DNA of 33,977 nucleotides from Micromonospora fulviviridis (GTDB lineage Bacteria; Actinomycetota; Actinomycetes; Mycobacteriales; Micromonosporaceae): the NCBI RefSeq assembly GCF_014648395.1, contig NZ_BMRA01000003.1, forward strand, positions 69,060-103,036. The letters are read 5' to 3'. How positions within the stretch are numbered: position 1 is the first letter of the stretch; each line of letters begins with the position of its first letter. Both the position numbers and the translations under genes were made by a program. Below the pieces are notes generated by a model, which saw nothing but the letters and a program-made list of their open reading frames with translations, did not search any database and was not told the DNA's origin. Shown here piece after piece: positions 2,996 to 33,977 of this stretch.

Positions 2996-3034
2996 CCGGC
3001 GGCGCCGGCCGCTGCGCGCAGCGGCCAGCGCCGG
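2996..3034. terminator. Bidirectional terminator-like hairpin between convergent genes
   Basis: GGCCGCTG (3007-3014) and CAGCGGCC (3019-3026) form a perfect 8-bp stem around CGCG, flanked by outer arms CCGGCG (2996-3001) and CGCCGG (3029-3034). It sits directly after the acyl-CoA dehydrogenase stop and before the stop of the convergent methyltransferase. There is no T-tract, as is usual for actinomycete terminators. Confidence 0.6.
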
Positions 3035-3050
3035 TGACCGGTGGGCTGGT

Positions 3051-3704
3051 CTAGGACCTGCGGCGGGCGAGCAGCGTGGAGTCGTGGATGTCGACCGTCA
3101 CGCCGTCGCGGGTGACGGTCCGCGGCCGCTGCTCGACCACGAGGGCCTCGAAGTCGTCCGGCAGCCCGGGCAGCAGCTCCTCGGCGACGAACATCGCCCT
3201 GCGGTGGCTCGCGGTCAGGTGGGTGAACGCCTCGTGCGGCGCGTGGCCGACGACGAGCAGGTGCCCGCCGGGCGCGACGGCCTCGGCCAGCCGGCGGGTC
3301 ACCTCCACCATCCCGCCTTCCGGCGGGTGCAGGAAGTGGCTGGTGACCAGGTCGTAGGACCGGCCGTCCGCCGCGAAGGTCCGGGCGTCGACCTGCCACC
3401 AGTCGGTGCGGTCGGCGACCCCGGCCTGCTCGGCGTGCCGGGCGGCGCGGGCCAGGCCGTTGGCGGAGAAGTCGGCGCCGGTGACCCGCCAGCCCTGCCG
3501 GGCCAGCCAGATCACGTCGCCGCCCTCGCCGCAGCCGACATCGAGCGCGGTGCCCGGCGTCAGCCCGGTCACCTCGGCGACGAGCTGCGGATTGGGGTTC
3601 CCGCTCCAGACCTTCTCCGGGCCGGAGTACCGCTCGTCCCAGCTCGGCGGCTCGAACATGGCGGCCGCCTCCTCCTCGGTGAGGTGGTGTCCGTGTCCGC
3701 TCAC
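3051..3704 (-). CDS. Class I SAM-dependent methyltransferase
   Basis: Predicted 217-aa cytosolic methyltransferase. The N-terminal WDERYSG...VWSGNPN segment is typical of the small thiopurine/tellurite-type group. SAM motif I is LDVGCGEGGD, the acidic end of beta-2 is TGADFS, and the motif II/III region is YDLVTSHFLHPP. The GTG at 3704 was chosen because GGAAG lies about 8 nt upstream; a closer ATG is out of frame. It is divergent from the NTF2-fold gene across an intergenic region holding a TTGCCG/CGGCAA dyad, which suggests shared control. It closely resembles the 12197-12805 protein (same WSxxPN, LTPG and WLAxQGWRVT landmarks), so the two are paralogues. The substrate is unknown. Confidence 0.88.
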   Translation of the reverse strand: MSGHGHHLTEEEAAAMFEPPSWDERYSGPEKVWSGNPNPQLVAEVTGLTPGTALDVGCGEGGDVIWLARQGWRVTGADFSANGLARAARHAEQAGVADRTDWWQVDARTFAADGRSYDLVTSHFLHPPEGGMVEVTRRLAEAVAPGGHLLVVGHAPHEAFTHLTASHRRAMFVAEELLPGLPDDFEALVVEQRPRTVTRDGVTVDIHDSTLLARRRS

Positions 3705-3805
3705 GACATGGCTTCCTTTCGGTGCGCGGCGGCGATCAGGCCGCAGGACTCGGTGACGTCCCTGCCCACCAGCATCCGGAACCCTCCCGACGCCGACAAA
3801 CTTAA

Positions 3806-3820
3806 TTGCCGTTTCGGCAA
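3806..3820. promoter_or_regulatory. Operator-like inverted repeat TTGCCG-TTT-CGGCAA
   Basis: A perfect 6-bp inverted repeat with a 3-nt spacer, inside a short AT-rich patch between the divergent methyltransferase (start 3704) and NTF2-fold gene (start 3867). Its size and symmetry suit a dimeric HTH repressor. No regulator gene is adjacent, so the binding protein is unknown. Confidence 0.5.
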
Positions 3821-3866
3821 ATCCGGCGGAGGTCCGATGTCGGTGCCGGCCGGTAGGGTCCGCGCC

Positions 3867-4250
3867 GTGAGTGACACCGCCGTGACCCGGCAGACCGGTC
3901 AGGACTACGTCGATCGCCTCGAACGCCGCGACTGGCCCGGCTTGGCCGGCCTGCTCACCGACGACGTGGTCTACGAGATGCCGCAGACCCGGGAGCGCAT
4001 CCGCGGCAGGGAGGCGTTCCTGCGGTTCAACATCGAGTATCCCGGCGACTGGCACCTGCGGGTGCGCCGACTGGTCGCGGACGGCGGGTCGGCCGCCCTG
4101 TGGCTCGACGTCCGGGTGGGCGACGAGCAGCAGGACGCGTGTGTCTGGCTGGAGGTGTCCGAGCGTGGCCTGATCAGCCGGATCGTCGACTACTGGCCCG
4201 AACCGTACGAGCCGCCGCAGGGCCGCGAACACCTCGTGGAGCGGTGGTGA
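3867..4250 (+). CDS. SnoaL/NTF2-fold small protein
   Basis: Predicted 127-aa protein of the SnoaL-like (NTF2 fold) superfamily, shown by an N-terminal helix with QDYVDRLERRDW, a loop LLTDDVVYEMPQTRE, the GREAFLRF strand start and a C-terminal strand ending RIVDYWPEPYEPP. Members are polyketide cyclases, isomerases or ligand-binding proteins; the function here is not predictable. The GTG start was chosen because TAGGGT (3854-3859) lies 7 nt upstream, the usual geometry of a leaderless actinobacterial promoter. An alternative ATG at 3837 in the same frame has GGAGG 5 nt upstream and would add ten residues. It is divergent from the methyltransferase and probably co-regulated with it. Confidence 0.75.
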   Translation: MSDTAVTRQTGQDYVDRLERRDWPGLAGLLTDDVVYEMPQTRERIRGREAFLRFNIEYPGDWHLRVRRLVADGGSAALWLDVRVGDEQQDACVWLEVSERGLISRIVDYWPEPYEPPQGREHLVERW

Positions 4251-4258
4251 GCGGCGGA

Positions 4259-4278
4259 CGGTCCGACCGCCCGGACCG
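4259..4278 (+). terminator. Terminator-like hairpin after NTF2-fold gene
   Basis: CGGTCCG (4259-4265) and CGGACCG (4272-4278) form a perfect 7-bp stem with a 6-nt loop, starting 8 nt after the stop codon. No T-tract follows. Confidence 0.5.
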
Positions 4279-4351
4279 ACGAGGTCAATCCGGTGGGGGA
4301 CGGCGTGGTCTCGTGCGACCATGGCGGGCATGACGATGGTCAGAAAGGGTC

Positions 4352-4761
4352 ATGGCGCGTAGGTCACCGGCGGCGGTACGCGCCGCCTGCCCACGGCGGG
4401 CTGACCGCCACCACAAGGTGCCCGAGATGGACGGGCTTCCCGTCGCGGCCGCCCGACAGATTTCCCGGTACGAGCGTTCGGCCCTGCGGCCCGGCGCCGT
4501 GGCCCGTGCCCTGACCGGGTGGCGACGGGCGGTTCATCGACCGGTCGCAGCCCTCCAGGATGCCGCGCAGGCCGGATGCCCCTGTTGCGACCCGCTGGAA
4601 CACCGCGACGTGTTGGCTGCGGCGGTGGCGGCGCTGGGCCCCCGGGCGCGCCCCGCGAGCTCCTGGAGCTGCTCCGCCCGCTGGACGAGGTCTTCGAACG
4701 TCGCACGATCCACGACCCGCAGGCGTCACCCGAGCTGCCCTGGTGGCGCCGACGTGCCTGA
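4352..4761 (+). pseudogene. Frameshifted small conserved protein with CPCC motif
   Basis: Two frames read as one protein of about 136 aa. The first runs from ATG 4352 and includes VPEMDGLPVAAARQ, YERSALRPGAVARAL and CPCCDPLEHRDVLAAAVAAL. After the C/G-rich stretch at about 4637-4655 the protein-like sequence continues in the next frame as RELLELLRPLDEVFERRT and ends WWRRRA at a stop at 4759-4761. Moving between the frames needs one extra base, so a single-base deletion lies in or near CCCCC (4639-4643) or CCCC (4651-4654). Either the gene is broken or the assembly has a homopolymer error. The paired cysteines could bind metal, but I do not recognise a function. The ATG has AAAGG only 3 nt upstream, so the start is uncertain. 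Confidence 0.6.
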
Positions 4762-4842
4762 AGCCTGGACCGGGCCCACAGCTCGACCTGCGGGAGCCGG
4801 GACCCGACGGCCGGCCCCGACCGGCGGGGGAACGGCCGTTCT

Positions 4843-4864
4843 CGGCGACACGAGTGTGTCGCCG
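4843..4864. promoter_or_regulatory. Perfect 9-bp inverted repeat CGGCGACAC-GAGT-GTGTCGCCG
   Basis: Arms at 4843-4851 and 4856-4864 with a 4-nt GAGT loop, ending 21 nt before the ATG of the 97-aa gene. It could be an operator, a 5' hairpin, or the terminator of the preceding frameshifted gene. The sequence alone does not decide. Confidence 0.45.
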
Positions 4865-4885
4865 CCCGCGTGAGAACATGCGTCC

Positions 4886-5179
4886 ATGAGCAGCGACGTC
4901 CCCCTCGAGGTCAGCGCCCTGGCCATCAACGTCACGATCCCCGAAGGGCTCCGCTGGACCGACACCCGACGCGGTGAGGAGTTCACGCTGACCACGCTCA
5001 ACGTCCGGCTCCTGCCCGACGGGAGCCTCGCGGCGAAGGCATACGGCCGGCCGACCGCCGGTGGCCGCGGCACCTACGTCTCGTTCCCCGTGCCCGACCG
5101 GCCCGAGCTGGCGGCTCTGGTCGACGGGGCCGCCAGCCGCGCCGGCGCGCTGTGGGCCGCTCACCGCGGTCTCGGCTGA
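4886..5179 (+). CDS. Small hypothetical protein, 97 aa
   Basis: I do not recognise this family. The 97-aa product has no signal peptide, membrane segment or cysteine. It starts MSSDVPLEVSALAINVTIP and contains an alternating polar/hydrophobic central part (EEFTLTTLNVRLLPDGSLAA), which suggests a small beta-rich domain, then a C-terminal helix. The ATG at 4886 has no Shine-Dalgarno sequence; GAACAT lies 6 nt upstream, the position of a -10 box for leaderless transcription. Codon use matches the neighbours, which supports real coding. It ends 14 nt before the stop of the convergent methyltransferase. Confidence 0.6.
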   Translation: MSSDVPLEVSALAINVTIPEGLRWTDTRRGEEFTLTTLNVRLLPDGSLAAKAYGRPTAGGRGTYVSFPVPDRPELAALVDGAASRAGALWAAHRGLG

Positions 5180-5193
5180 CGGCCGGCGGCCGA

Positions 5194-6006
5194 TCAGATG
5201 CGGCGGAGCACCAGAGTCACGAAGCCCAGAACGTTCCGGTACCCGCGCAGCCACTGATCGCGGTGCTCCCGGGCCACGGTGAGTGCCTCGGCGGCGTCCG
5301 GATGGCCGGGGTTGTCCAGCGCCCACCGGGTGAGCGAGCCGATCCACGACCACTCGTAGTCGTCCCACTCGGCGGCGTCGCTGACATGGGCGTACACCGG
5401 CGTCCAGCCGGCCCGCTCGGCGGTGTCGACCAGGCCGGCGAGGTCGGTGAACTCCTCGGGCTTCGCGTCGAGCGCGGCGAGGGCCTCCGGAGTCGGGGGG
5501 ATCTGCCAGAATCCCTCACCGACCATCAGGATCCCGTCGGCATTCGCGTGCCGGCCGGCCAGCTCCAGCGTCGGGCCGAAGCCGCCGAACGCGTGGGTCG
5601 ATCCGACGCACAGCACGAGGTCGTAGTCGCCGTCGGGCACGTACGTCCGGGCGTCGCGCTCGTGCAGCGTGAGCCGGTCGGCGAGGCCGCGCGCGGCGGC
5701 GGCCCCGGCGGCGCGTTCGAGGGCGTACGGGCTGACGTCCACGCCGTCCGCGTGCCCGTCGGGGTAGTGGGCGAGGGCCTGCAGGACCCAGGACCCCTCT
5801 CCGCAGCCGAGGTCGAGGACACGAGCCGTCGGTTGGCGGTCCGCCCGGCGCAGGAGCCGGTTGACGTTGACACCGAAGATCGGGGCCGCGATCGGGTGGT
5901 GGGTGTGCGCGATGCTGCTGAGCCGTTGACGATCCACCGGCAGAGTCAACACGAGTCCGTCGACGCCCGCACCCGGGTTGTCCTGCCGGGTGGTCGGCCC
6001 CCGCAC
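5194..6006 (-). CDS. Class I SAM-dependent methyltransferase
   Basis: Predicted 270-aa methyltransferase. SAM motif I is VLDLGCGEGSWV, the following acidic strand is DGVDVSPYALERA, and YDLVLCVGSTHAFGG fits motif II. A C-terminal region of about 100 aa rich in Trp and acidic residues (AEWDDYEWSWIGSL) probably shapes the substrate pocket. The GTG at 6006 was chosen because GAGGT lies 8 nt upstream; an inner GTG at 5952 would remove 18 residues that carry no recognisable motif. It is divergent from the M50-like protease gene with only 45 nt between starts, so their promoters overlap. The substrate is unknown. Confidence 0.85.
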   Translation of the reverse strand: MRGPTTRQDNPGAGVDGLVLTLPVDRQRLSSIAHTHHPIAAPIFGVNVNRLLRRADRQPTARVLDLGCGEGSWVLQALAHYPDGHADGVDVSPYALERAAGAAAARGLADRLTLHERDARTYVPDGDYDLVLCVGSTHAFGGFGPTLELAGRHANADGILMVGEGFWQIPPTPEALAALDAKPEEFTDLAGLVDTAERAGWTPVYAHVSDAAEWDDYEWSWIGSLTRWALDNPGHPDAAEALTVAREHRDQWLRGYRNVLGFVTLVLRRI

Positions 6007-6051
6007 GGTCAGGTACCTCGCCCGCTACGTGTCCGGCCGTACCATCTCCCG

Positions 6052-7239
6052 GTGATCTCCCCTCGCCGGCGGCTGGTCGCCGCGTCCGTCCTCCTGGTGC
6101 TGGAGGCGGTGGTGTTCGCGCTGTTCGTCACCGAGTCCGTCGTGGGTGCGATCGCCGCCGTCGGCGTCACCTGCCTGTCGTTGTGGGTGCACGTCGTCCT
6201 GCACGAGTGTGGGCACCTCGTCGTGGCGAAGCTGCTGCGCCTGCCGGTCGTCGCGGTCCGTGTCGCACCCTTCACCGGGTGGCGGAGCGAAGTGTGGGTC
6301 CGGCCGGCGCCGCCGGCGACCGCGTTGCCACTGCGGATGGTGCTGTTCTACCTCGGCGGCCCGACGGTGAACCTGTGCACGGCGGCGGTGCTCGCTGCCG
6401 TGGCGGCGTCGACGGGCACGGCGTCGACCCGCGTCGCGCTGTTCGGGGCGGCGCTTGTCGGGGCGCTGCTCGCGGTGGTCAATCTCGTCCCCGGAACATC
6501 GCCCCGCAGTGACGGCCGCAACCTGCTTCGCTGGCTCCTGGCGCCGACGGCCACCCGCGCGGCGCTGCGCGCGGGCTACTACCAGGAGGAGGTGAGGAGG
6601 ACGTTGCGGGCGATCAGCCGAGGGGAGGTCGGCGACGACCGTCTCGCAGATCCGGTTCGCGACGCCGACGACCCGCGGCTCGCGCTCGCCGCCTTCCAAC
6701 GGCGCTGGAGCACGGGGCACGCGCAGTCGGCGGCCGATTTCATCGCCGACGCCGAGCGGCTCGCGGCGCTGGCTCGCGCCGACGGCACCGATCCCCTGGC
6801 CGCCGCCGCGATCGGGGAGGCGCTCACCGTCCAGTTCGGGTTGTGGTACCTGTACGCCGCGGTGGTGAACGGCTCACCCGTCGAACGGCGGGAGGTGGTG
6901 GAGCTTGCGGAACTGGCCCAGCTCGCCTTCCAGGCGCAGCCGCACCTGTTGTCCGCTCGGGTCGCCATGGGCCTGGCTCACCTGCTCGACCAGCGGCCGG
7001 AGCACGCGCGGTCGCTGCTTCTCGACATCCGGCCGGGTGTCGACCCGCCGGACCTGTGCGGCGTCGCGTTTCTCCTGCGGGCCGCCGCCGAGTGCCACCT
7101 CGGCAACCACGCCGACGCGGACACCCTCGTCAGGGCGGCCGGGGGCGACCACCAGCAACTGGCACAGGTCGTTGCCGCGATCCGGGCGGCCGATCCGGTG
7201 CCGCCCCTGTTCGCTCCGGCACCGATGGCCGACGCCTGA
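6052..7239 (+). CDS. M50-like membrane metalloprotease with C-terminal helical domain
   Basis: Predicted 395-aa integral membrane protein. Hydrophobic segments near residues 6-27 and 29-49 lead into HECGH, an HExxH zinc site. Another membrane segment pair follows, then NLVPG...SDGRNLLRW, which matches the NxxPG...DG motif carrying the third zinc ligand of site-2-type (M50) intramembrane proteases. About 220 C-terminal residues are soluble and helical, with TPR-like Ala/Leu patterns (AQLAFQAQPHLLSARVAMGLAHLL). The GTG start was chosen because TACCAT (6040-6045) lies 6 nt upstream, a leaderless promoter. It is divergent from the methyltransferase. No anti-sigma partner is adjacent, so the substrate is unknown. 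Confidence 0.78.
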   Translation: MISPRRRLVAASVLLVLEAVVFALFVTESVVGAIAAVGVTCLSLWVHVVLHECGHLVVAKLLRLPVVAVRVAPFTGWRSEVWVRPAPPATALPLRMVLFYLGGPTVNLCTAAVLAAVAASTGTASTRVALFGAALVGALLAVVNLVPGTSPRSDGRNLLRWLLAPTATRAALRAGYYQEEVRRTLRAISRGEVGDDRLADPVRDADDPRLALAAFQRRWSTGHAQSAADFIADAERLAALARADGTDPLAAAAIGEALTVQFGLWYLYAAVVNGSPVERREVVELAELAQLAFQAQPHLLSARVAMGLAHLLDQRPEHARSLLLDIRPGVDPPDLCGVAFLLRAAAECHLGNHADADTLVRAAGGDHQQLAQVVAAIRAADPVPPLFAPAPMADA

Positions 7240-7304
7240 CCGGCGTGAGCTCGGATCCAGGTGGCCACGGACGTTACCCGGTGGCGGACCGGCGGCCCGG
7301 GGCG

Positions 7305-7316
7305 CAGGATGACCCG
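7305..7316 (+). promoter_or_regulatory. Leaderless -10 box CAGGAT before nucleotidyltransferase
   Basis: CAGGAT (7305-7310), six bases GACCCG, then the GTG start codon. The same 15-base string CAGGATGACCCGGTG recurs at the start of the PAP2-like gene (minus strand, 17549-17535). No convincing -35 box is seen here. Confidence 0.5.
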
Positions 7317-8108
7317 GTGACACCGCCCGAGCTGGTTCTGTCCGACCTTCGTGACGCGTGGAGCACCGCCCTGGCCGGCAGGCTCCTGGGCCTCTACCTG
7401 CACGGCTCGCTGGTCGCCGGCGACTTCGCGGCGGACCGCAGCGATCTCGACCTGCTCGCGGTGCTGGCCACCGATCCGGACGAGAACCTGCTCGGCGTGC
7501 TCGCCGGACTACACGCGGATTTGGACCGGCGGCACCCGCGGTGGGCCGGCCGGATCGAGGTGGAATACGTGTCACTGGGCGCCACGCGCGACGCAGCGCA
7601 CGGGCGCGCCGGTCACCACCATGCCATTGCCCGGGTCAGTCCCGGTGAGTCGCTGCACCTGCTACCCGCGACCACCCACCGCGTCGTGACCTGGTCCGCC
7701 GTCCACGACCACGGCCGCAGCCTGCTGGGACCGCCCGCCGAGGCGCTGCTCCCCGCGGTCGACGCCGATCTCGTCCGCTCGGCTCTGCTGGACCACGTCC
7801 GCGACTGGCCGACCTGGGTGACCCGGATGAACACTCCCGGCGCGCAGTCCTACGCGGTGCTCACCCTGTGCCGGGCCTTCCAGCGCCTCCGGAACGGCCG
7901 GCAGCTGTCCAAGCGGCGGGCCGCCGACCGGACCATCGCCGACCGTCCCCGATGGGCGGACCTCATCATCTGGGCACGCGACTGGTGGTACCGGTCCGGT
8001 CAGGACACCGATCCGGGCCGGGCCGACGAGGTACGGGAATTCGTGAACGAGGTCAGCGCCGCCATCCTGGCCCCGGAACACGGCACGCGGGCCGGCCTCG
8101 CCGGATGA
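7317..8108 (+). CDS. Nucleotidyltransferase, aminoglycoside adenylyltransferase-like
   Basis: Predicted 263-aa protein with a nucleotidyltransferase fold near its N terminus: HGSLVAGDF followed by DRSDLDLL gives the GS...DxD metal-binding signature, and EVEY provides a candidate third acidic residue. The C-terminal domain (AVLTLCRAFQRLRNG, then SKRRAADR) matches the helical substrate domain of the ANT(3'')/AadA-like group, which transfers AMP to aminoglycoside hydroxyls. Many chromosomal members have no proven resistance role. The GTG start follows CAGGAT plus 6 nt, consistent with leaderless expression. It is convergent with the acyl-CoA ligase across a nested hairpin. Confidence 0.75.
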   Translation: MTPPELVLSDLRDAWSTALAGRLLGLYLHGSLVAGDFAADRSDLDLLAVLATDPDENLLGVLAGLHADLDRRHPRWAGRIEVEYVSLGATRDAAHGRAGHHHAIARVSPGESLHLLPATTHRVVTWSAVHDHGRSLLGPPAEALLPAVDADLVRSALLDHVRDWPTWVTRMNTPGAQSYAVLTLCRAFQRLRNGRQLSKRRAADRTIADRPRWADLIIWARDWWYRSGQDTDPGRADEVREFVNEVSAAILAPEHGTRAGLAG

Positions 8109-8116
8109 CGGGGGTT

Positions 8117-8154
8117 CCGGCTGGTCCGACGGGGCCCCGATCGGTCGGTGCCGG
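8117..8154. terminator. Nested hairpin between convergent genes
   Basis: CCGGC (8117-8121) pairs with GCCGG (8150-8154), and inside it CCGAC (8126-8130) pairs with GTCGG (8144-8148), around a GGGGCCCC core. It lies between the nucleotidyltransferase stop and the stop of the opposing acyl-CoA ligase, so it could serve both. Confidence 0.45.
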
Positions 8155-8157
8155 TGG

Positions 8158-9837
8158 TCAGCCCTCGGCGAGCAGGCGGTCGCGGACCTCGCGGCGGAGA
8201 ACCTTGCCGATCTGCGAGCGGGGCAGCTCCTCGACCACCACCACCCGGCGGGGCACCTTGTAGCCGGCGAGGTGCCGCCGGCAGGCCGAGCGGACCGAGT
8301 CCGGGTCGGCGCCCACTCCCGGGTCCAGCACCACGGCGGCCACCACCTCCTCGCCGTCGCCGCCGGGCAGGCCGACCGCGGCGGCCTCACGGACGCCGGG
8401 GATCCGGCGCAGCGCCTCCTCCACCTCGGACGGGTAGACGTTGAACCCGCCCGTGATGATCAGCTCCTTGATCCGGTCGACCACGGTGACGAAGCCGTCG
8501 GCGTCCATGGTGACCACGTCCCCGGTGCGCAGCCAGCCGCCGGGCAGCAGCACGCGGGCCGTCTCCTCGGGGCGGTTCCAGTAGCCGGAGAACACCTGCG
8601 GGCCGCGGACCAGCAGCTCGCCGGCCTCGCCGGGGGCGCGGTCCCGGGTCGGGTCCTCCGGGTCGACGAGGCGCACCTCGGTGGAGGGGAACGGCACCCC
8701 CACCGTGCCCGGCCGGCGGGTCGGGGCGACCGGGTTGCCCAGGGTGATGGGGGATGTCTCGGTCATCCCGTAGCCCTCGACGAGCAGGCCGCCGGTCACC
8801 GACTCCCACAGCTGCACGGTGGCCGGCGGGAGCGCCATCGCGCCGGAGATGGCGTACCGGACGGAGGTGAGGTCGACGCCGCGTTCCCGGGCGGCGGTGG
8901 CGAGCCGCGCGTAGACCGGCGGGACCGCGGGCAGGAAGGTCGGCGGGCGGCGGCGGGCCGCGTCGAGGACCTGGTCGAGGTCGAAGCGGGGGAAGAGCAC
9001 CAGGGTGGCCCCGATGCTCACCGAGAAGGTCAGGCAGAGGGTCAGCCCGTACGCGTGGAACAGCGGCAGCACGGCGTACACGGTCTCCGCGCCGTCGCGC
9101 AGGCCGGGCACCCAGGCGCGGCCCTGCGCGGCGTTGGCTCGCAGGTTGCGGTGGGTCAGCACCGCGCCCTTCGGGACGCCGGTGGTGCCGCCGGTGTACT
9201 GGAGCAGCGCGGTGTCGGTGGGCCGGGGCGCGGGATGGTCGGCGGCCAGCGGGGCGGCCCCGGCGACCAGCGCCGACCAGGAGAGCGCGCCGGGGGCCGG
9301 GGCGCTCATCGCGGCCCGGGCGGCGCGGACCTTGGGCAGCGGCAGCCGCAGCGCCCAGCGCTTGAGCCGCGGCAGCGCCCCGGTCAGGTCGACGGCCAGC
9401 ACCGTCTCCACCGCGCCCCGCCCGGCGACCAGCGGGGCGACCTTGTCCCAGACCACCGCGACCCGGGCGCCGTGGTCGCTGAGCTGGTGGGCCAGCTCGT
9501 CGGCGGTGTAGAGGGGGTTGTGCTCGACCACCACGGCGCCGAGGCGCAGCACCGCGTAGAAGGCGACCACGTGCTGCGGGCAGTTCGGCAGCACCAGCGC
9601 CACCCGGTCGCCGGGGCCGACGCCGAGCCGGCGCAGCGCCTCGGCCGCCCGGGCGACCTGGTCGGCGAGGTCGGCGTAGCTGGTGGTGGCGCCGTAGAAG
9701 TCGAGCGCGACCCGGGGGCCGAAGCGGCGGGCGGCGTCGGTGAGCAGGTCCACGAGCGAGCCGGTCGGCTCCGCGATCTCGGCCGGTACGCCGGGGGCGT
9801 AGCTGCGCGTCCAGGGCCGCTCCGCGGTCGCGTCCAT
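8158..9837 (-). CDS. Long-chain fatty acyl-CoA ligase (ANL superfamily)
   Basis: Predicted 559-aa AMP-forming enzyme that activates carboxylic (probably fatty) acids to acyl-adenylates and then CoA thioesters. All ANL core motifs are present: YTGGTTGVPKGAVLTH (phosphate-binding loop), YGMTETSP, the hinge region WLRTGDVVTMDADGF...VDRIKELI, and the catalytic lysine in RSQIGKVLRRE near the C terminus. ATG at 9837 was chosen over the adjacent GTG at 9840 because GAGGAG is 6 nt upstream. A near-perfect 20-bp palindrome about 50 nt upstream is a probable repressor site. It is separated from the acyl-CoA dehydrogenase by 5 kb, so the two are not one operon. Confidence 0.93.
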   Translation of the reverse strand: MDATAERPWTRSYAPGVPAEIAEPTGSLVDLLTDAARRFGPRVALDFYGATTSYADLADQVARAAEALRRLGVGPGDRVALVLPNCPQHVVAFYAVLRLGAVVVEHNPLYTADELAHQLSDHGARVAVVWDKVAPLVAGRGAVETVLAVDLTGALPRLKRWALRLPLPKVRAARAAMSAPAPGALSWSALVAGAAPLAADHPAPRPTDTALLQYTGGTTGVPKGAVLTHRNLRANAAQGRAWVPGLRDGAETVYAVLPLFHAYGLTLCLTFSVSIGATLVLFPRFDLDQVLDAARRRPPTFLPAVPPVYARLATAARERGVDLTSVRYAISGAMALPPATVQLWESVTGGLLVEGYGMTETSPITLGNPVAPTRRPGTVGVPFPSTEVRLVDPEDPTRDRAPGEAGELLVRGPQVFSGYWNRPEETARVLLPGGWLRTGDVVTMDADGFVTVVDRIKELIITGGFNVYPSEVEEALRRIPGVREAAAVGLPGGDGEEVVAAVVLDPGVGADPDSVRSACRRHLAGYKVPRRVVVVEELPRSQIGKVLRREVRDRLLAEG

Positions 9838-9890
9838 CACCGTCTCCTCGCTGCCGGATGACGGTCCTCAGCCTAACTTAACCACCCGGT

Positions 9891-9910
9891 AACCTACGCC
9901 GGCGTAAGTT
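9891..9910. promoter_or_regulatory. TetR-type operator candidate AACCTACGCCGGCGTAAGTT
   Basis: A 20-bp inverted repeat with one mismatch per half-site (AACCTACGCC / GGCGTAAGTT), centred 64 nt upstream of the acyl-CoA ligase start. TAGGCT on the minus strand (9875-9870) is a likely -10, which puts the dyad over the -35 region. Size and symmetry fit TetR-family regulators, which commonly control fatty acid genes in actinomycetes. No TetR gene lies in the window. Confidence 0.65.
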
Positions 9911-9935
9911 GCTGAGTTCGTCACACGGCAGCGGG

Positions 9936-10112
9936 TCAGCGGCGTGGGGCGCCCCGTTGCACCACCCGGCGGCCCCGCACGAAGGCCAGCACGAGAAGGA
10001 CGACCACGGCGATGGCGCCGATGATGATCAGCCAGCGGGCTGCCTCCAGGAGCAGCCCGAGCAGGATGAGCACGCCGGCCACGACGCCGACCGTCCAGAG
10101 CAACGCCCGCAT
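9936..10112 (-). CDS. Small membrane protein, 58 aa
   Basis: A 58-aa product made almost entirely of two hydrophobic helices (about residues 3-23 and 27-46), separated by the short polar EAAR turn and followed by a basic tail (RGRRVVQRGAPRR). This predicts a helical hairpin in the cytoplasmic membrane with a cytoplasmic C terminus. The ATG at 10112 follows GGGAGGG at 4-5 nt, a strong ribosome binding site. Similar tiny proteins are common in actinomycetes; no function is known to me. It lies between the acyl-CoA ligase promoter and the spermidine-synthase-like gene, all on the minus strand. Confidence 0.72.
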   Translation of the reverse strand: MRALLWTVGVVAGVLILLGLLLEAARWLIIIGAIAVVVLLVLAFVRGRRVVQRGAPRR

Positions 10113-10183
10113 GTCACCCTCCCGGGAGTACGTGGGCCGCCCGCATTCCCCCGTCGGCTCCCGCCATGCCTGCCCGGGGCGGT

Positions 10184-10897
10184 TCAGTGCCGGGCCACGT
10201 ACACCGTGTTCGCGGCCTCCCGGCCCTGCAACGGGTTGGGGAAGCGGACGACGTGCGCCACCGACGTCGGGAACACCTCGGTGAGCGTCCGCTGGAACGC
10301 CGGGTCGGGCGGGTCGTTCGACCAGAGCGCGAACACCCCGTCCGGGTGCAGCAGCGCGGCGAGCCGGCGCAGCCCCTCCACGGTGTAGAAGTCGGCGTGG
10401 CTGGGGTGCAGCACCTGGCGCGGGGAGTGGTCCACGTCGAGCAGCACCGCGTGGAACCGCCGCTCCGGCGCTTCCGGATCGAACCCGGCGCCGCTCGCGA
10501 CCGCCGCGAAGAAGTCCGCCCGGACGAACCGGGTACGCGGGTCGGCGGCCAGCCCGGCGGCGAACGGCAGCAGGTCCCGGCGGTGCCAGTCGATCACGTC
10601 CTCGATCGCCTCGACCACCAGCAGCGAGCGCACCCGGGGATCCTCCAGCGCGGTGCGGGCGGTGTAGCCGAGGCCGAGTCCACCCACCACCACGTCCAGA
10701 TCCCCGGCGGTCAGCGGGGCCAGCCCGAGCCGGGCGAGTTCGATCTCCGCGACCGGGAAGAGGCTGGACATGAGGAACTCGTCGTCGAGCTTCACCTCGT
10801 ACACGTCGACGTCGAGCGACGGGTCGCGGCGCCGGCGCAGGCTGATCGCGCCGATCGGCGTCTCCCGCCAGGCCAGTTCCTCGAAGCGTGTGCCCAC
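10184..10897 (-). CDS. Spermidine synthase-like methyltransferase-fold protein
   Basis: Predicted 237-aa protein of the spermidine/spermine synthase-like superfamily. The nucleotide-binding stretch is LDVVVGGLGLGYTARTAL, followed by an acidic strand end LLVVEAIEDVIDWHR and a DFFAAV segment. FHAVLLDVDHSP lies where polyamine synthases have their catalytic Asp region. The full N-terminal beta-barrel of true spermidine synthases is reduced, so this is more probably a spermidine-synthase-like transferase of unknown substrate than a proven polyamine enzyme. GTG at 10897 is preceded by GAGAGGA at 5 nt. It is divergent from the alcohol dehydrogenase across 210 nt, where TAGCAT (rc of 10927-10932) is a possible -10. 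Confidence 0.8.
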   Translation of the reverse strand: MGTRFEELAWRETPIGAISLRRRRDPSLDVDVYEVKLDDEFLMSSLFPVAEIELARLGLAPLTAGDLDVVVGGLGLGYTARTALEDPRVRSLLVVEAIEDVIDWHRRDLLPFAAGLAADPRTRFVRADFFAAVASGAGFDPEAPERRFHAVLLDVDHSPRQVLHPSHADFYTVEGLRRLAALLHPDGVFALWSNDPPDPAFQRTLTEVFPTSVAHVVRFPNPLQGREAANTVYVARH

Positions 10898-11107
10898 GGG
10901 TGTCCTCTCCGCCGGTCCGTGACCGGATGCTACCGGCCGGTCGCCGGGTGCCCGGAGCATATGCGGGGAGAGGCCGTTCTTCCCGGTTGGGTGGCATCGT
11001 CGCGGCGACGACGGGTACGCCCCCGACGACTCCAGCCCCGGCGCGCCTGGCGCCGCGCATCGACCTGGAGCCGTCGCCGGTCGAGGATGCCGGAGAGGGG
11101 AGCGAGC

Positions 11108-29015: not shown

Positions 29016-32000
29016 ATGGCACAGCCGATGATCATCAATCGTTTCGGCGAGGTCGCGGCGCATCACGGTGAACGTCCGGCTCTGCTCGGTGAGACCCACG
29101 AGGTCGGTTACGCCGAGTTGGCCGGGGCAGCCGGGGGGCACGCCGCCGCGCTCGTCGCCGCCGGCGTCCGACCCGGCGACCGGATCGCCCTGCTCACCGC
29201 GCACGGCGCCCCGACCGTCGCGGCGCTGCTCGGCGCCCTCGCCGCCGGGTGCGCGTACGTGCCGCTGGACCCGGGCTTCCCGGTCGACCGGCTGCGCCAC
29301 ATGCTCGCCGCCGCCGGGGTCACCGCCGTCGCCTGCGCCGCCGAGCACCGCGAGCTGGCCCGGGCACTCGCCGACGGGCGGACCGTGGTGCCGCTCGACC
29401 AGGTGCCGCCCGCCCCGCTGCGGCCCGTCCCGGTCGACCCCGACGCGCTGGCGTACGTGCTGTTCACCTCGGGCTCCACCGGGGTGCCCAAGGCCGTCGG
29501 GCAGACCCACCGCAACCTGGCGCACGTCGTCGACAACCAGATCGCCGCGCTGGCGATCGGCCCGACCGACCGGCTCAGCCTGCTCGCCTCGTTCAGCTTC
29601 GACGCCGCCATCCCCGACCTCTACCCGGCGCTGCTCACCGGCGCCGCCGTGGTCCCGGTCGACCTGCGCCGGCAGGGGCTCGCCCACGCCGTCGAGCAGC
29701 TCGACCGGCACCGGGCCACCGTGCTGCACTGCACGCCCACCGTCTACCGCTACCTGCTGGACACCCTCGGCGAACGCCGTCTCGACGCGGTCCGGGTGGT
29801 GCTGCTCGGCGGCGAGCAGGCCACGTACGCGGACGCGGTCCGGGGCCGGGATCGGTTCGCCCCCGACTGCCGGCTGGTCAACGGCTACGGCGCCACCGAG
29901 ATGACCTTCGTGGCCCGGCACGAACTGACCCTGTCCACCGTGGACCCGGCCGCCGCCGGTCCGCTGCCGATCGGCACCGCCTTCCCCGGCTACCAGGTGG
30001 ACCTCGCCCCGGACACCGGCGAGCTGGTGGTCCGCAGCCGGCACCTCGCCCCCGGCTACCTCAACCAGGACAGCGACCGGTTCACCCTGGACGCCGACGG
30101 GGTGCGGTCGTACCGCACCGGCGACCTCGGCCGGCGGCTGCCCGGCGGTGAGCTGGTCTGCCTCGGCCGGCTCGACCGGCAGGTCAAGGTGCGCGGGCAC
30201 CGCGTCGAGCTGACCGAGATCGAGGCCGTGCTCGCGGCCCAGCCCGGCGTGGCCGGGGTACGCGCCATCGCCCGCGACGGCGAGCTGCTGGCGTACGCCC
30301 GCCCGGCCCGTGAGCGTCCCGACCCCGCCGTGCTCGGCGCCGCGCTCGCCGCCGCGCTGCCCGGGTACGCGCTGCCCCGCGCGGTCGTGCTGCTCGACGA
30401 GTTCCCGCTCACCGTCACCGGCAAGATCGACGAGCGGGCGCTGCCCGACCCGGCGGCCCAGGCGCCGGCCGGGGACGTGCCCGCCACCGACACCGAGCGG
30501 GTCGTGCACGACATCTGGTGCGCCGTGCTCGGCCGCCCGGCGGTCGGCCGCACCGACAGCTTCTTCGACGTCGGCGGGCAGTCCCTGCTGCTGGGCCAGG
30601 TGCAGCAGCGGCTCGCCGAGCGGTTCGGCGTGCGCCTGCCCCTGCTGCGCCTCTTCGACCACCCCACGGTGGCTGCCCAGGCGGCGCTGCTCGACGCCCC
30701 GCCCGACGCGGTCCGTGCCGCGGTGCTGCCCGCGCCGGCCGTGCCCGCCGCCGCGGCCCGCGAGTACACCGGTGACGAGATCGCCGTGGTCGGCCTGGCC
30801 GGCCGCTTCCCCGGCGCGCCGGACGTGGCGACCTTCTGGTGGAACCTGTGCACCGGGGTCGACTCGATCCACGAGCACACCGACGAGGAGCTGGCCGCCC
30901 TCGGCGTCGGGCCGGGGCTGCGCGCGGACCCCCGGCACGTGCGGGCCGTCGGCCGGCTCGACGGGGTGGCCGACTTCGACGCCGGGTTCTTCTCGTTCGG
31001 CGCCGACGAGGCAGCCCGGACCGACCCGCAGCACCGGCTCTTCCTGGAGACCGCCTGGGAGGCCCTGGAGGACGCCGGGCACGACCCGGACCGCTTCCCC
31101 GGCCTGGTCGGGGTCTACTCGGCCACCTCCGCCAACCGGTACTTCCTGTTCCACCTCATGGACAACCCGGCCGTGGTGGGCGACGTCGACCCGGACGACT
31201 GGGAGGCCCGGCTGATCGGCCGGCAGTTCACCGATCACCTGCCCGGTCAGGTCGCCTACCGGCTCGGGCTCACCGGGCCCGCCCTGGCCGTGCAGAGCGC
31301 CTGCTCCAGCTCGCTGGTCGCGGTCTGCCTCGCCGCGCAGAGCCTCGCCGACTACCAGTGCGACCTCGCCCTGGCCGGCGGGGTGACCGTCACCTGGCCC
31401 CGGCACCGGCACACCCCGGGCGGCCTGGCGTCCCCGGACGGCCGGTGCCGCGCCTTCGACGAGGGCGCCAACGGCTCCGGCTTCGGCTCCGGTGTCGGGG
31501 TCGTCGCGCTGCGCCGGCTCGCCGACGCCCAGGCCGACGGCGACCGGATCTACGCCGTCCTGCCCGGCTGGGCGGTCACCAACGACGGCGCCGACCGGGC
31601 CGGCTTCGCCGTGCCGGGGCCGGGCGGCCAGGCCGCCGCGGTGGCCAACGCGCTGGCCACCGCCGAGGTCGCCCCCGGCGAGGTCGGCCTGGTCGAGGGG
31701 CACGGCAGCGGCACGCCGCTCGGCGACGCCATCGAGGTCGCCGCGCTGCACGAGGTGTACGCCGGCGCCGCACCCGCCGAGACCTGCGCGCTCGGCTCGG
31801 TGAAGACCAACATCGGCCACCTCGACGCCGCCGCCGGGATCGCCGGGCTCATCAAGGCGGTGCTTGCCGTGCGGCACGGGGTGATCCCGCCGAACCTGCA
31901 CTTCACCCGGCCGCACCCGGAGATCGACCTGGCCGCCGGCCCGTTCTACGTGCCCACCAAGGCACGGGACTGGCCCGAGGGGCCGCGCCGGGTGGCCGGG

Positions 32001-32483
32001 GTCAGCGCCTTCGGCCTGGGCGGCACCAACGCGCACGTCGTGGTGGAGCAGCCGCCGCCGGCCGACCCCGCCCGCCTGCCCGGCGACGGGCCGTGGCTGC
32101 TGCCGGTGTCGGCGCGTACTCCGGCGGCGCTGCGGGCCGCGCTGGCCCGGCTGCGGGCCCACCTCGCCGGCGACGCCCCGGCGTTGCCCGAGGTGGCCGC
32201 CACCCTGGCGCTCGGCCGGCGGGCCTTCGCCCACCGGGCCGCGGTTGTCGCCGCCGACCTGCCCGGCGCGCTGGGCGGACTGGACGCGCTGCTCGACACC
32301 GACGCCCGGGTCGCGGGCGAGGGTGGCCCGCTGCGCGAGCTGGCGGCCGACTGGGTCGCCGGGCGGGACGTCGACTGGGACGTCCTGCATCCCGAGGGCA
32401 CGGTCCGGCGCACCGGCCTGCCCACCTACCCGTTCCAGCGCCAGCGGTACTGGATCGACCCCGTGCAGAAAGGTCCGCGGTGA
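29016..32483 (+). CDS. Hybrid NRPS-PKS: adenylation, carrier, ketosynthase (A-PCP-KS, no AT)
   Basis: Predicted 1155-aa megasynthase. The A domain (about 1-475) has LFTSGSTGVPKA, NGYGATEM, YRTGDLG, DRQVKVRGHRVEL and Lys of TGKID; Asp of SFDAAIPD keeps the alpha-amino contact, so an amino acid is probably loaded. The PCP (about 485-560) has DVGGQSLL with phosphopantetheine Ser523. The KS (about 585-1015) has Cys763 (SACSSS), His896 (GHGSGTPLGD) and His935 (NIGHLDAAAG). The KS-flanking region then runs straight into LPTYPFQRQRYW with no AT core, and no ACP follows. There is no C domain, so it fits a loading/first-extension protein that uses an AT and ACP supplied in trans. The next gene overlaps in GTGA. 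Confidence 0.93.
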   Translation: MAQPMIINRFGEVAAHHGERPALLGETHEVGYAELAGAAGGHAAALVAAGVRPGDRIALLTAHGAPTVAALLGALAAGCAYVPLDPGFPVDRLRHMLAAAGVTAVACAAEHRELARALADGRTVVPLDQVPPAPLRPVPVDPDALAYVLFTSGSTGVPKAVGQTHRNLAHVVDNQIAALAIGPTDRLSLLASFSFDAAIPDLYPALLTGAAVVPVDLRRQGLAHAVEQLDRHRATVLHCTPTVYRYLLDTLGERRLDAVRVVLLGGEQATYADAVRGRDRFAPDCRLVNGYGATEMTFVARHELTLSTVDPAAAGPLPIGTAFPGYQVDLAPDTGELVVRSRHLAPGYLNQDSDRFTLDADGVRSYRTGDLGRRLPGGELVCLGRLDRQVKVRGHRVELTEIEAVLAAQPGVAGVRAIARDGELLAYARPARERPDPAVLGAALAAALPGYALPRAVVLLDEFPLTVTGKIDERALPDPAAQAPAGDVPATDTERVVHDIWCAVLGRPAVGRTDSFFDVGGQSLLLGQVQQRLAERFGVRLPLLRLFDHPTVAAQAALLDAPPDAVRAAVLPAPAVPAAAAREYTGDEIAVVGLAGRFPGAPDVATFWWNLCTGVDSIHEHTDEELAALGVGPGLRADPRHVRAVGRLDGVADFDAGFFSFGADEAARTDPQHRLFLETAWEALEDAGHDPDRFPGLVGVYSATSANRYFLFHLMDNPAVVGDVDPDDWEARLIGRQFTDHLPGQVAYRLGLTGPALAVQSACSSSLVAVCLAAQSLADYQCDLALAGGVTVTWPRHRHTPGGLASPDGRCRAFDEGANGSGFGSGVGVVALRRLADAQADGDRIYAVLPGWAVTNDGADRAGFAVPGPGGQAAAVANALATAEVAPGEVGLVEGHGSGTPLGDAIEVAALHEVYAGAAPAETCALGSVKTNIGHLDAAAGIAGLIKAVLAVRHGVIPPNLHFTRPHPEIDLAAGPFYVPTKARDWPEGPRRVAGVSAFGLGGTNAHVVVEQPPPADPARLPGDGPWLLPVSARTPAALRAALARLRAHLAGDAPALPEVAATLALGRRAFAHRAAVVAADLPGALGGLDALLDTDARVAGEGGPLRELAADWVAGRDVDWDVLHPEGTVRRTGLPTYPFQRQRYWIDPVQKGPR

Positions 32484-33977
32484 ACTGGTTCGTCTCCGCC
32501 GGAAGCCGACCCCAGGCGCCGGTGCGGTTGTTCTGCCTGCCCTACGCCGGCGCCGGCGCGAGCGCGTTCCGGCGCTGGCAGGAGGGAATCGGGCCGGACG
32601 TCGAGGTGCTCCCGGTGCAGCTGCCCGGCCGGGAGAACCGGATCAACGAGGATCCGCGCTTCGACGTCGCCGAGGTGGCCGAGGCGATCGCCGCCCGGGC
32701 CGACCGCCCGTACGCCCTCTACGGCCACTCGATGGGCGGCCGGCTCGGCTTCGAGGTGGTCCGGGAGCTGCGCCGGACCGGCCGCCCGCTGCCGGTGCGG
32801 CTCTACGTCGGCGGCGCCCGCGCCCCGCACGTCACCGCGCCCGGCCTCTTCGACGGGCTGTCCCGCGCCGACGACGAGGAGCTGCTGCGCCGCCTCGCCG
32901 ACGGCGGCGGCCTCCCCGCCGAGCTGTTCGACCACCCGGAGCTGGTGGAGCTGCTGCTGCCGCTGCTGCGGGCCGACTTCGGCCGGGTGGACGGCTACCG
33001 GTACGTGCCCGGCGAGCCGCTGCCGCTGCCGATCGTCGCGTTCAGCGGCCGGGACGACCGGGCGGTCACCCACGAGCAGAACGCCGCCTGGGCCGCGCAC
33101 ACCGCCGCCGGGTTCACCCTGCACGAGCTGGCCGGCGGCCACTTCTTCCTGCACGACCAGCTCCCCGAGCTGCTCGCGCTCGTCCGCGCCGACCTGACCG
33201 CGGCGCTCGACGCCGAGACCACCCGCGCCGACGGTCGCGGCACCGACCTCGTCGACGGGTCGGTCGCGCACGGTCTCCCGGGGCGCGCCGCCGGTCGCGG
33301 GACCGCCGGCGGCGCGCACCGGGTGCCGCTCGGCGACACCGCCTGGTCGGTGTGGCGCGACGCCATCCTGCGGACCACCGGTTTCCCGGCCGACGGCCTG
33401 GACCTGTTCTCCGCGCCCCGGGCCGCCGCGGCGGCCGACGAGCTGCTCGCCACCGGCGCCGGCCAGGACCGGTACGACAAGGAGTTCGACGAGGCGGTCC
33501 GCGCCGCCGCCGAGCGGCTCAGCGAGCTCGCCGCCGACCCGCTGCTGCGCGAGGCCGTCACCTGGCAGAACCGGGGCGCGCTGGTCGCGCTCGACGGGCT
33601 GGTCCGCGGCGGCGCCGACGCGGCCCGCAACGTGCGGCGGCGGGACCGGGAGCGGGCGCTGCTCAAGTACTGGCAGCGCTACTGCGGCAAGAACGAGACG
33701 GTCGGCTTCTTCGGCCCGAGCTGCTGGGTGACCGTCGACCCCGACCAGCCGGAGACCGTCCGGATCCGCCCCGGCGCGCGGCTCACCCGCCGGCGCTGGG
33801 TCTGGTTCGAGTCCTGGGCGCTCGCCGCGTACGCCCAGCGGATCGGCGCCGACCTGGCCGTCCGCCGGTGGTGGCCGCCGGTGCTGCGCCCGCACCTCGC
33901 GGTCCGGGACCGGACCGTGCTGCGCCCCGGTCGGCCCCCGCTGGCGCTGAACCCGGTGGAGGCGGCGCTGCTGGCGG
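32480..33977 (+). CDS. Type II thioesterase fused to LanB-type lantibiotic dehydratase (3' end outside window)
   Basis: One uninterrupted frame of 499 codons to the right edge. Residues 1 to about 245 are a type II thioesterase (alpha/beta hydrolase): FCLPYAGAGASAF, Ser84 in GHSMGG, Asp192 in SGRDD, His221 in GGHFF. A Gly/Arg/Ala-rich linker (about 246-281) follows. From residue 282 the sequence is the N-terminal part of a LanB dehydratase: VPLGDTAWSVWRDAILR, FPADGLDLF, REAVTWQNRGALVALD and KYWQRYCGKNETVGFFGP. Thioesterases clear blocked carrier domains; LanB N-terminal domains glutamylate Ser/Thr from glutamyl-tRNA. I know of no such fusion. GTG at 32480 overlaps the megasynthase stop (GTGA), so they are translationally coupled. 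Confidence 0.88.
   Translation, partial: MNWFVSAGSRPQAPVRLFCLPYAGAGASAFRRWQEGIGPDVEVLPVQLPGRENRINEDPRFDVAEVAEAIAARADRPYALYGHSMGGRLGFEVVRELRRTGRPLPVRLYVGGARAPHVTAPGLFDGLSRADDEELLRRLADGGGLPAELFDHPELVELLLPLLRADFGRVDGYRYVPGEPLPLPIVAFSGRDDRAVTHEQNAAWAAHTAAGFTLHELAGGHFFLHDQLPELLALVRADLTAALDAETTRADGRGTDLVDGSVAHGLPGRAAGRGTAGGAHRVPLGDTAWSVWRDAILRTTGFPADGLDLFSAPRAAAAADELLATGAGQDRYDKEFDEAVRAAAERLSELAADPLLREAVTWQNRGALVALDGLVRGGADAARNVRRRDRERALLKYWQRYCGKNETVGFFGPSCWVTVDPDQPETVRIRPGARLTRRRWVWFESWALAAYAQRIGADLAVRRWWPPVLRPHLAVRDRTVLRPGRPPLALNPVEAALLA

What the first reader, a model, noticed from the sequence alone, without database searches (positions are those of the whole stretch)
32480..33977. Type II thioesterase fused in frame to a LanB lantibiotic dehydratase
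The sequence reads without a stop from a complete TEII (Ser84/Asp192/His221) through a low-complexity linker into an unmistakable LanB N-terminal region (CGKNETVGFFGP and surrounding motifs). TEII normally serves carrier-protein assembly lines and LanB serves ribosomal peptides. Joining them in one polypeptide ties thioester chemistry to tRNA-dependent glutamylation. One reading is that TE releases or hands over an acyl/aminoacyl chain to a peptide that LanB modifies. Another is that the LanB-like domain acts on a carrier-bound or small-molecule substrate.
Basis: partly seen in the sequence, partly recalled or inferred. Interest (0 to 1): 0.93.

Follow-up and report, generated by a model that had tools for sequence, protein, structure and literature searches.

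The report
Thioesterase fused to tRNA-dependent peptide ligase
A relative of the bacterium Micromonospora encodes one protein that joins a thioesterase to a domain usually labelled a lantibiotic dehydratase, whose studied relative SnaE instead builds a peptide bond, so the fusion likely adds an amino acid taken from transfer RNA to a molecule made by a peptide-polyketide assembly line.

Summary
In detail: from the GTG at 32480 one frame runs through a complete type II thioesterase (TE) and a low-complexity linker into a PF04738 domain; the whole protein has 1048 aa. It is no artefact: 64 of 346 family genomes show the fusion without a stop. The label "LanB dehydratase" does not hold: no elimination domain or LanC was found in the genome, and the domain groups with SnaE, the NRPS-associated PEARL-like ligase, apart from lanthipeptide LanBs, keeping the residues reported for ATP and tRNA use in PEARLs. 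It sits in an NRPS-PKS cluster beside a second ligase copy. TE-fused "lantibiotic dehydratases" of such clusters are mentioned in one sentence of Yu & van der Donk 2024, so the architecture is in print but uncharacterised. What differs: no urea-type C domain, so the carboxylate source of the studied case is missing. I propose that the TE likely frees the carboxylate that the tethered ligase then extends. Against this, nine of ten PEARL genes picked for lacking a fused TE have no TE nearby. Substrate, tRNA and product are unknown.

The parts
29016..32483 (+). A-T-KS protein (1155 aa), first gene of the NRPS-PKS cluster; KS followed by a linker but no AT and no second carrier domain
   Evidence: Pfam AMP-binding, PP-binding, ketoacyl-synt; ten genes read to its left are sugar transport, dehydrogenase, isomerase-like, glycoside hydrolase, CBS/BON, molybdopterin, NUDIX, DUF2267, so the cluster likely starts here
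32480..33977 (+). TE-PEARL fusion gene, part inside the window (ends 1649 bases past the window; 1048 aa in all)
32480..33214 (+). type II thioesterase domain (residues 1-245)
32729..32731 (+). TE nucleophile Ser84
   Evidence: Ser in 121 of 121
33056..33058 (+). TE acid Asp193 (reader named Asp192, which varies)
   Evidence: Asp in 121 of 121
33140..33142 (+). TE base His221
   Evidence: His in 121 of 121
33215..33316 (+). low-complexity linker between the domains, predicted flexible
   Evidence: length of the region 15-80 aa in 121 sequences, 43% mean identity against 84% (TE) and 83% (ligase); residues 247-279 of the relative P0001 have pLDDT under 50
33317..33977 (+). N-terminal part of the PEARL-like (SnaE-type, PF04738) ligase domain; the rest lies beyond the window
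33371..33373 (+). conserved Arg (LRxxGFP), candidate counterpart of BhaB7 Arg34 / TglB Arg10
   Evidence: invariant; counterpart assigned by order and spacing only
33668..33691 (+). YWQRYCGK: Tyr and Arg candidate counterparts of BhaB7 Tyr205/Arg208 (tRNA CCA end); Lys in place of a LanB Arg
   Evidence: residue roles from passages of PMC11962472

Best explanation
The window encodes a type II thioesterase joined in one reading frame to a SnaE-type ligase domain, and the pair likely works as a release-and-extend unit in which the thioesterase would free a carboxylate from a carrier protein and the ligase would couple to it an amino acid from an aminoacyl-tRNA. Shown: the fusion, the intact TE triad, the clade with SnaE, the conserved residue set, the NRPS-PKS context, a second ligase gene with the same residues, and no match for an elimination domain or LanC in the genome. 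Inferred: (1) the domain makes an amide bond (from kinship to SnaE and residue conservation), using ATP to form an acyl phosphate and aminoacyl-tRNA as amine; (2) the TE supplies the carboxylate by hydrolysis, because the urea-forming C domain that exposes it in the studied sna pathway is missing here; (3) the linker is a tether that keeps the freed chain near the ligase; (4) the second copy would add a second residue. Which carrier, which chain and which tRNA are unknown.
For: Fusion without a stop in 64 of 346 genomes; of the 120 relatives listed (885 found) all 120 list PF00975 and 117 also list PF04738. TE triad 121/121; TEII fold and nearest structures RedJ, RifR, BorB. Ligase: tree 100/100 apart from three lanthipeptide LanBs, SnaE inside. 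Fifteen positions were read column by column in 73 sequences: 13 candidate counterparts of residues reported for BhaB7 plus the Lys and Glu/Asp of K-N-[DE]; all are kept (two as Tyr/Phe or Glu/Asp), except that one truncated row lacks the last two. The Arg of SE[LIF]R, counterpart of TglB Arg803 that matters for phosphorylation, is absent in the three lanthipeptide LanBs. SnaE was identified as L082 by its cluster: A-T-C-A-T with EHHLVHDG, KS-AT-T, TE, LanB-like gene. No PF14028 or LanC match in the window genome; the PF14028 search rings in 3 of 5 genomes. No EHHxxHDG in the three C domains of this cluster nor in the core C domain of 12 related loci; seven sampled core C domains form a clade without SnaA's C (100/99). 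TE and ligase also occur as separate neighbours: adjacent genes in L019, same cluster in G131, separate genes in sna.
Against: Of ten genomes picked because one search showed their PEARL without a TE part, nine have no TE match on the same contig within 500 kb and one (G093) has it in the same frame; contigs end, so this is an upper bound on absence. L020 and L021 show no TE in the 22 kb held. So a TE is not required for every such ligase. The fused state changed at least twice on the tree. The cluster has another TE in its last gene, so the fused TE may only do housekeeping; TEIIs are best known as editors (general knowledge). The second copy is not universal: G165 keeps only a C-terminal fragment beside the fusion, and in G146 or G172 the second match lies far from the fusion. 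In one search one of 121 rows has Ser at both positions of the E-x-R pair and one has a gap at the Tyr/Arg/Lys/Glu block. Residue counterparts were assigned by order and spacing, since no TglB or BhaB7 sequence was obtained. No activity, substrate or product data.
Confidence: 0.45

Rival explanations
1. The ligase domain is a working SnaE-type enzyme, but the fused TE is a plain editing TEII that clears stalled carrier domains; the fusion only keeps the two activities together. The ligase would act on the free C-terminus left by the terminal TE, or on a side-chain carboxylate.
For: TEII kinship to RifR, RedJ, BorB; a terminal TE exists in the last gene; nine PEARL genes without a TE nearby; TE and ligase unfused in L019, G131 and sna.
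Against: The TE is attached to the ligase rather than to an NRPS or PKS module in 64 genomes of seven genera as numbered by the tool and in an Actinophytocola locus (L018); the linker varies in length but the frame is kept.
Confidence: 0.35
2. The TE acts after the ligase: it cleaves the ester that still links the new amide product to tRNA, or passes that group to the carrier domain of the A-T-C-T protein that lacks its own A domain.
For: PEARL chemistry is described as leaving a peptidyl-tRNA ester to be hydrolysed (PMC12945691 passages; PMC11212132); the second T of the A-T-C-T protein has no A domain.
Against: tRNA hydrolysis is said to be demonstrated for PEARLs, with no TE mentioned (PMC11212132); the missing A domain tracks with a separate A-T plus KS in 17 of 18 clusters read.
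Confidence: 0.1
3. A true LanB: the domain glutamylates Ser/Thr on a ribosomal or carrier-bound peptide for dehydration.
For: PF04738 match and TbtB/MibB fold.
Against: No elimination domain or LanC match in the genome; LanB R-x-T-P replaced by K-N-[DE] or K-A-E; PEARL-type Arg kept; clade with SnaE, which is needed for an amide bond (PMC11212132).
Confidence: 0.05

Closest known systems
SnaE of the sna (threopeptin) cluster, Stackebrandtia nassauensis (Yu & van der Donk 2024, PMC11212132)
   Same: PF04738 domain without elimination domain, NRPS-PKS cluster with A-T-C-(A)-T and KS-AT core and a TE, same residue set; 34% identity to P0001
   Different: SnaE and its TE (SnaD) are separate proteins; the SnaA C domain has the urea signature EHHLVHDG while this cluster's C domains do not; one ligase there, two here
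TE-fused 'lantibiotic dehydratases' of NRPS/PKS clusters
   Different: one sentence only; no characterised fusion appeared in my eight paper searches
PEARLs acting on scaffold peptides (TglB, BhaB7, AmmB2)
   Same: candidate ATP- and tRNA-binding residues in the same order and near the same spacing
   Different: those extend ribosomal carrier peptides; sequences were not compared directly
TbtB / NisB / MibB glutamylation domains
   Different: glutamyl transfer for dehydration, no ATP use; 10-17% identity; not found by sequence profile
Type II thioesterases RifR, RedJ, BorB
   Same: fold, 35-42% identity
   Different: those are discrete proteins (general knowledge)

Membership tests
NRPS/PKS-associated PEARL-like ligases (SnaE type) | PF04738 domain without the PF14028 elimination domain | tested here: met
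NRPS/PKS-associated PEARL-like ligases (SnaE type) | groups with SnaE, apart from lanthipeptide LanBs | tested here: met
   100/100; only three lanthipeptide LanBs as outgroup
NRPS/PKS-associated PEARL-like ligases (SnaE type) | residues for ATP phosphorylation and tRNA CCA binding | tested here: met
   counterparts by order and spacing, not by direct alignment to TglB/BhaB7
NRPS/PKS-associated PEARL-like ligases (SnaE type) | encoded in an NRPS/PKS cluster | tested here: met
NRPS/PKS-associated PEARL-like ligases (SnaE type) | no precursor or carrier peptide gene in the cluster | not tested
   short ORFs were not searched for a precursor
NRPS/PKS-associated PEARL-like ligases (SnaE type) | amide bond formation from aminoacyl-tRNA | not testable with these tools
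   needs biochemistry
sna-like pathway with chain reversal | C domain with EHHxxHDG | tested here: not met
   VHHAVFDG, VHHAVFDS, QHHIVGDG in this cluster; core C clade excludes SnaA C
class I lantibiotic dehydratase (LanB) | glutamylation plus elimination domain, with LanC | tested here: not met
class I lantibiotic dehydratase (LanB) | R-x-T-P active-site motif | tested here: not met
   K-N-[DE] or K-A-E instead; the motif's role in NisB is recalled
type II thioesterase | TEII fold with Ser-Asp-His | tested here: met
type II thioesterase | thioester hydrolysis | not testable with these tools
   needs biochemistry

The most novel reading that the evidence does not exclude
A tethered cut-and-paste module of an assembly line: the TE cuts a carrier-bound chain to a free acid and the attached ligase re-extends that acid with a residue delivered by tRNA, with the second ligase copy adding another, so that ribosome-type substrates finish or branch a nonribosomal chain without any urea chain reversal.
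Probability: 0.35. Interest if true: 0.75.

Novelty: new variant of a known kind. Interest (0 to 1): 0.5.

Why it matters
Many Micromonospora proteins that are annotated as lantibiotic dehydratase or thioesterase (about 110 of the 120 relatives listed carry a Micromonospora name) probably are amide-forming enzymes of assembly lines. The only studied relative needs a urea step to expose a carboxylate; this family lacks the urea signature yet keeps the ligase and often ties it to a thioesterase, so it offers a direct test of how a nonribosomal chain can be offered to aminoacyl-tRNA. The cluster occurs in many sequenced Micromonospora, so its product can be sought.

Tried and rejected
Sequencing error or chance read-through: rejected. 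Nine genomes where the ligase matched without the TE at over 70% identity (G154, G223, G280, G238, G157, G162, G241, G165, G159): five were read (G223, G154, G280, G165, G159) and all five have the TE in the same frame, the alignment having broken at the linker; the other four were not read. Apparent loss of key residues in the second copy (motif search) was an artefact of my patterns; column by column they are present. Full class I lanthipeptide system: rejected. By sequence, neither the second ligase alone (chance matches only) nor the profile of alignment A1 (23 matches, all to the TE part or other hydrolases) found a LanB of known structure; the ligase fold rests on the rows of TbtB, MibB, MadB, GodF and NisB and of TbtB and MadB, whose list is mostly hydrolases for residues 1-245. 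NCBIfam gave no family for P0001 or the second copy. Reference PEARLs (TglB, BhaB7) were sought among plasmids with SnaE as query; none found at E up to 10. In one search one lanthipeptide row (L052) was the wrong reading frame and is not counted. A-domain specificities: read by eye against codes that I recall, the third looks Asn/Asp-like and the fourth Ser-like; not tested and not used. Paper searches for this Micromonospora cluster returned nothing on it.

Full report
What is there. The window is G000:C3:69060-103036. From the GTG at 32480 a frame runs open to the window end and on in the contig to a stop ending 1649 bases further: 1048 aa. Pfam finds Thioesterase (16-237) and Lant_dehydr_N PF04738 (352-987, nearly the whole profile) and no elimination domain. 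A short run of N directly follows the window's last base; its length fits the frame and relatives have no break there.

The fusion is real and old. A search of about 5.8 billion proteins scored 7992 candidates and returned 885 relatives; of the best 120 listed all 120 list PF00975 and 117 also list PF04738, at 70-94% identity, about 110 with a Micromonospora name. Of 346 family genomes searched, 64 (the window's own included) show one alignment across both domains with no stop (my count from a cut list); they fall in seven genera as numbered by the tool. One more, G005, has two TGA in the match. An Actinophytocola locus (L018) has the fusion too. In 121 aligned sequences (120 relatives and the window) the linker region runs from 15 to 80 residues at 43% mean identity to the window, while the TE and ligase parts are at 84% and 83%. 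The AlphaFold2 model of the relative P0001 (94% identity) has mean pLDDT 90 with two folded parts and a stretch 247-279 under 50. Ser84, Asp193 and His221 of the TE are each conserved in 121 of 121.

The neighbourhood. The cluster begins with the A-T-KS gene at 29016; ten genes read to the left look unrelated. To the right of the fusion come a second ligase gene of 767 aa, an A-T-C-T protein, KS-AT-KR-DH-T, a TauD-type oxygenase, C-A-T, and C-A-T-TE fused to an MFS transporter. The PF14028 search rang nowhere in its own controls, so it was repeated with five genomes: it rings in G340, G299 and G138 and not in G000 or G048. The LanC search rang in one of 14 controls.

What the LanB-like domain is. 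In print: Yu & van der Donk (PMC11212132; outline and parts 1-3 of 6, which hold the main text) showed that SnaE, annotated as a lantibiotic dehydratase in an NRPS-PKS cluster of Stackebrandtia nassauensis, is needed to add Thr through an amide bond, and call it PEARL-like. SnaE is 34% identical to P0001, and the window's second copy 54%. The window's ligases share with SnaE the motif K-N-[DE]-x-[IV]-G-F-F-G-P (the second copy has A for N), where three lanthipeptide LanBs have R-x-T-P. In a tree of 31 sequences the 28 NRPS-type ones, SnaE included, stand apart from three lanthipeptide LanBs with 100/100; four second copies form one group with 100/100; the TE-fused label needs at least two changes.

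Active-site residues. Passages of PMC11962472 and PMC12945691 name BhaB7 residues modelled, and in part tested, for ATP, Mg and tRNA: Arg34, Tyr205, Arg208, Tyr426, Arg429, Asp558, Glu575, His577, Arg715, Phe755, Lys763, Glu813, Arg815. Residues in the same order and with mostly close spacing are invariant in the 31-row alignment A1, save the Phe755 counterpart, which is Tyr or Phe. Column by column in 73 sequences (49 TE-fused, 8 unfused, 15 under the second-copy label, SnaE) all are kept, except in one row truncated before the last two. Five partial duplicate rows were dropped before that count; loci with two copies under one label gave one row; the second-copy label also takes in G299 and L060, which are not part of this cluster type; near-identical strains were not removed. 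In the 121 rows one has Ser at both positions of the E-x-R pair and one has a gap at the Tyr/Arg/Lys/Glu block. The assignment to BhaB7 is by order and spacing; no TglB or BhaB7 sequence was at hand.

Where does the carboxylate come from? In sna a urea-forming C domain leaves a free carboxylate that SnaE extends. This cluster's C motifs are VHHAVFDG, VHHAVFDS and QHHIVGDG. In the 12 related loci whose core C motif was read it is xHHxxxDG and never EHHxxHDG; only the sna locus has that signature, and in G131 no such motif was found (its C domain reads as degenerate). Seven sampled core C domains form one clade, 100/99, without SnaA's. So chain reversal is not supported here and another source is needed. 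The TE is the natural candidate: it is intact, it is tied to the ligase in many clusters, it sits as the adjacent gene in L019 and as a free gene of the same cluster in G131. Against it: of ten genomes picked because one search showed the ligase without a TE part, nine (G342, G092, G082, G084, G088, G089, G332, G083, G086) have no TE match on the ligase's contig within 500 kb, while G093 has it in the same frame; L020 and L021 show none in the stretch held; and this cluster has a terminal TE as well. The second ligase copy is not universal either: G165 keeps only a C-terminal fragment there.

Verdict. A TE-PEARL fusion, a poorly studied variant of a kind already in print. The identity of both domains is well supported; the release-and-extend mechanism is inferred (about 0.45). 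Literature searches; no characterised TE-PEARL appeared in their listings. PMC10769383 was seen in listings only.

Noticed in passing
29016-32483 and the A-T-C-T gene right of the window (L008:8983-12483): Where the core protein is A-T-C-T (no second A domain), a separate A-T plus a KS without AT is present; the two clusters with A-T-C-A-T (G138, G074) lack that pair. 17 of 18 clusters read fit (G342 is the exception; L018 was cut and G131 left out; eight of the 18 are close relatives). The pair may load the orphan carrier domain in trans.
   Followed up: partly
L009:5275-10821 (C-A-T-TE-MFS): The last gene fuses a terminal NRPS module and TE to an MFS transporter; also seen in G138, G048, G188 and G002. 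Release and export may be coupled.
   Followed up: no
L105 (G299) 2992-8724: C-A-T fused to a SnaE-type ligase domain, an example of the thiolation-domain fusion mentioned in PMC11212132.
   Followed up: no
L021 (Amycolatopsis taiwanensis) and L079 (G131): Two tandem PEARL-like genes without a fused TE; their extra copy and the window's second copy fall in different groups of the tree.
   Followed up: no
L087 (G165) 9093-11069: Beside an intact fusion only a C-terminal fragment of the second ligase copy (profile part 613-766 of 767) was found, a sign that the copy can decay.
   Followed up: no
L083 7556-10372: A PF04738 protein without the SELR Arg and the GFFGP motif; neither SnaE-type nor typical LanB.
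   Followed up: no
L009:1016-1969: TauD-type oxygenase next to a C-A-T module whose A domain looks Asn/Asp-like by a recalled code; possible beta-hydroxylation.
   Followed up: no
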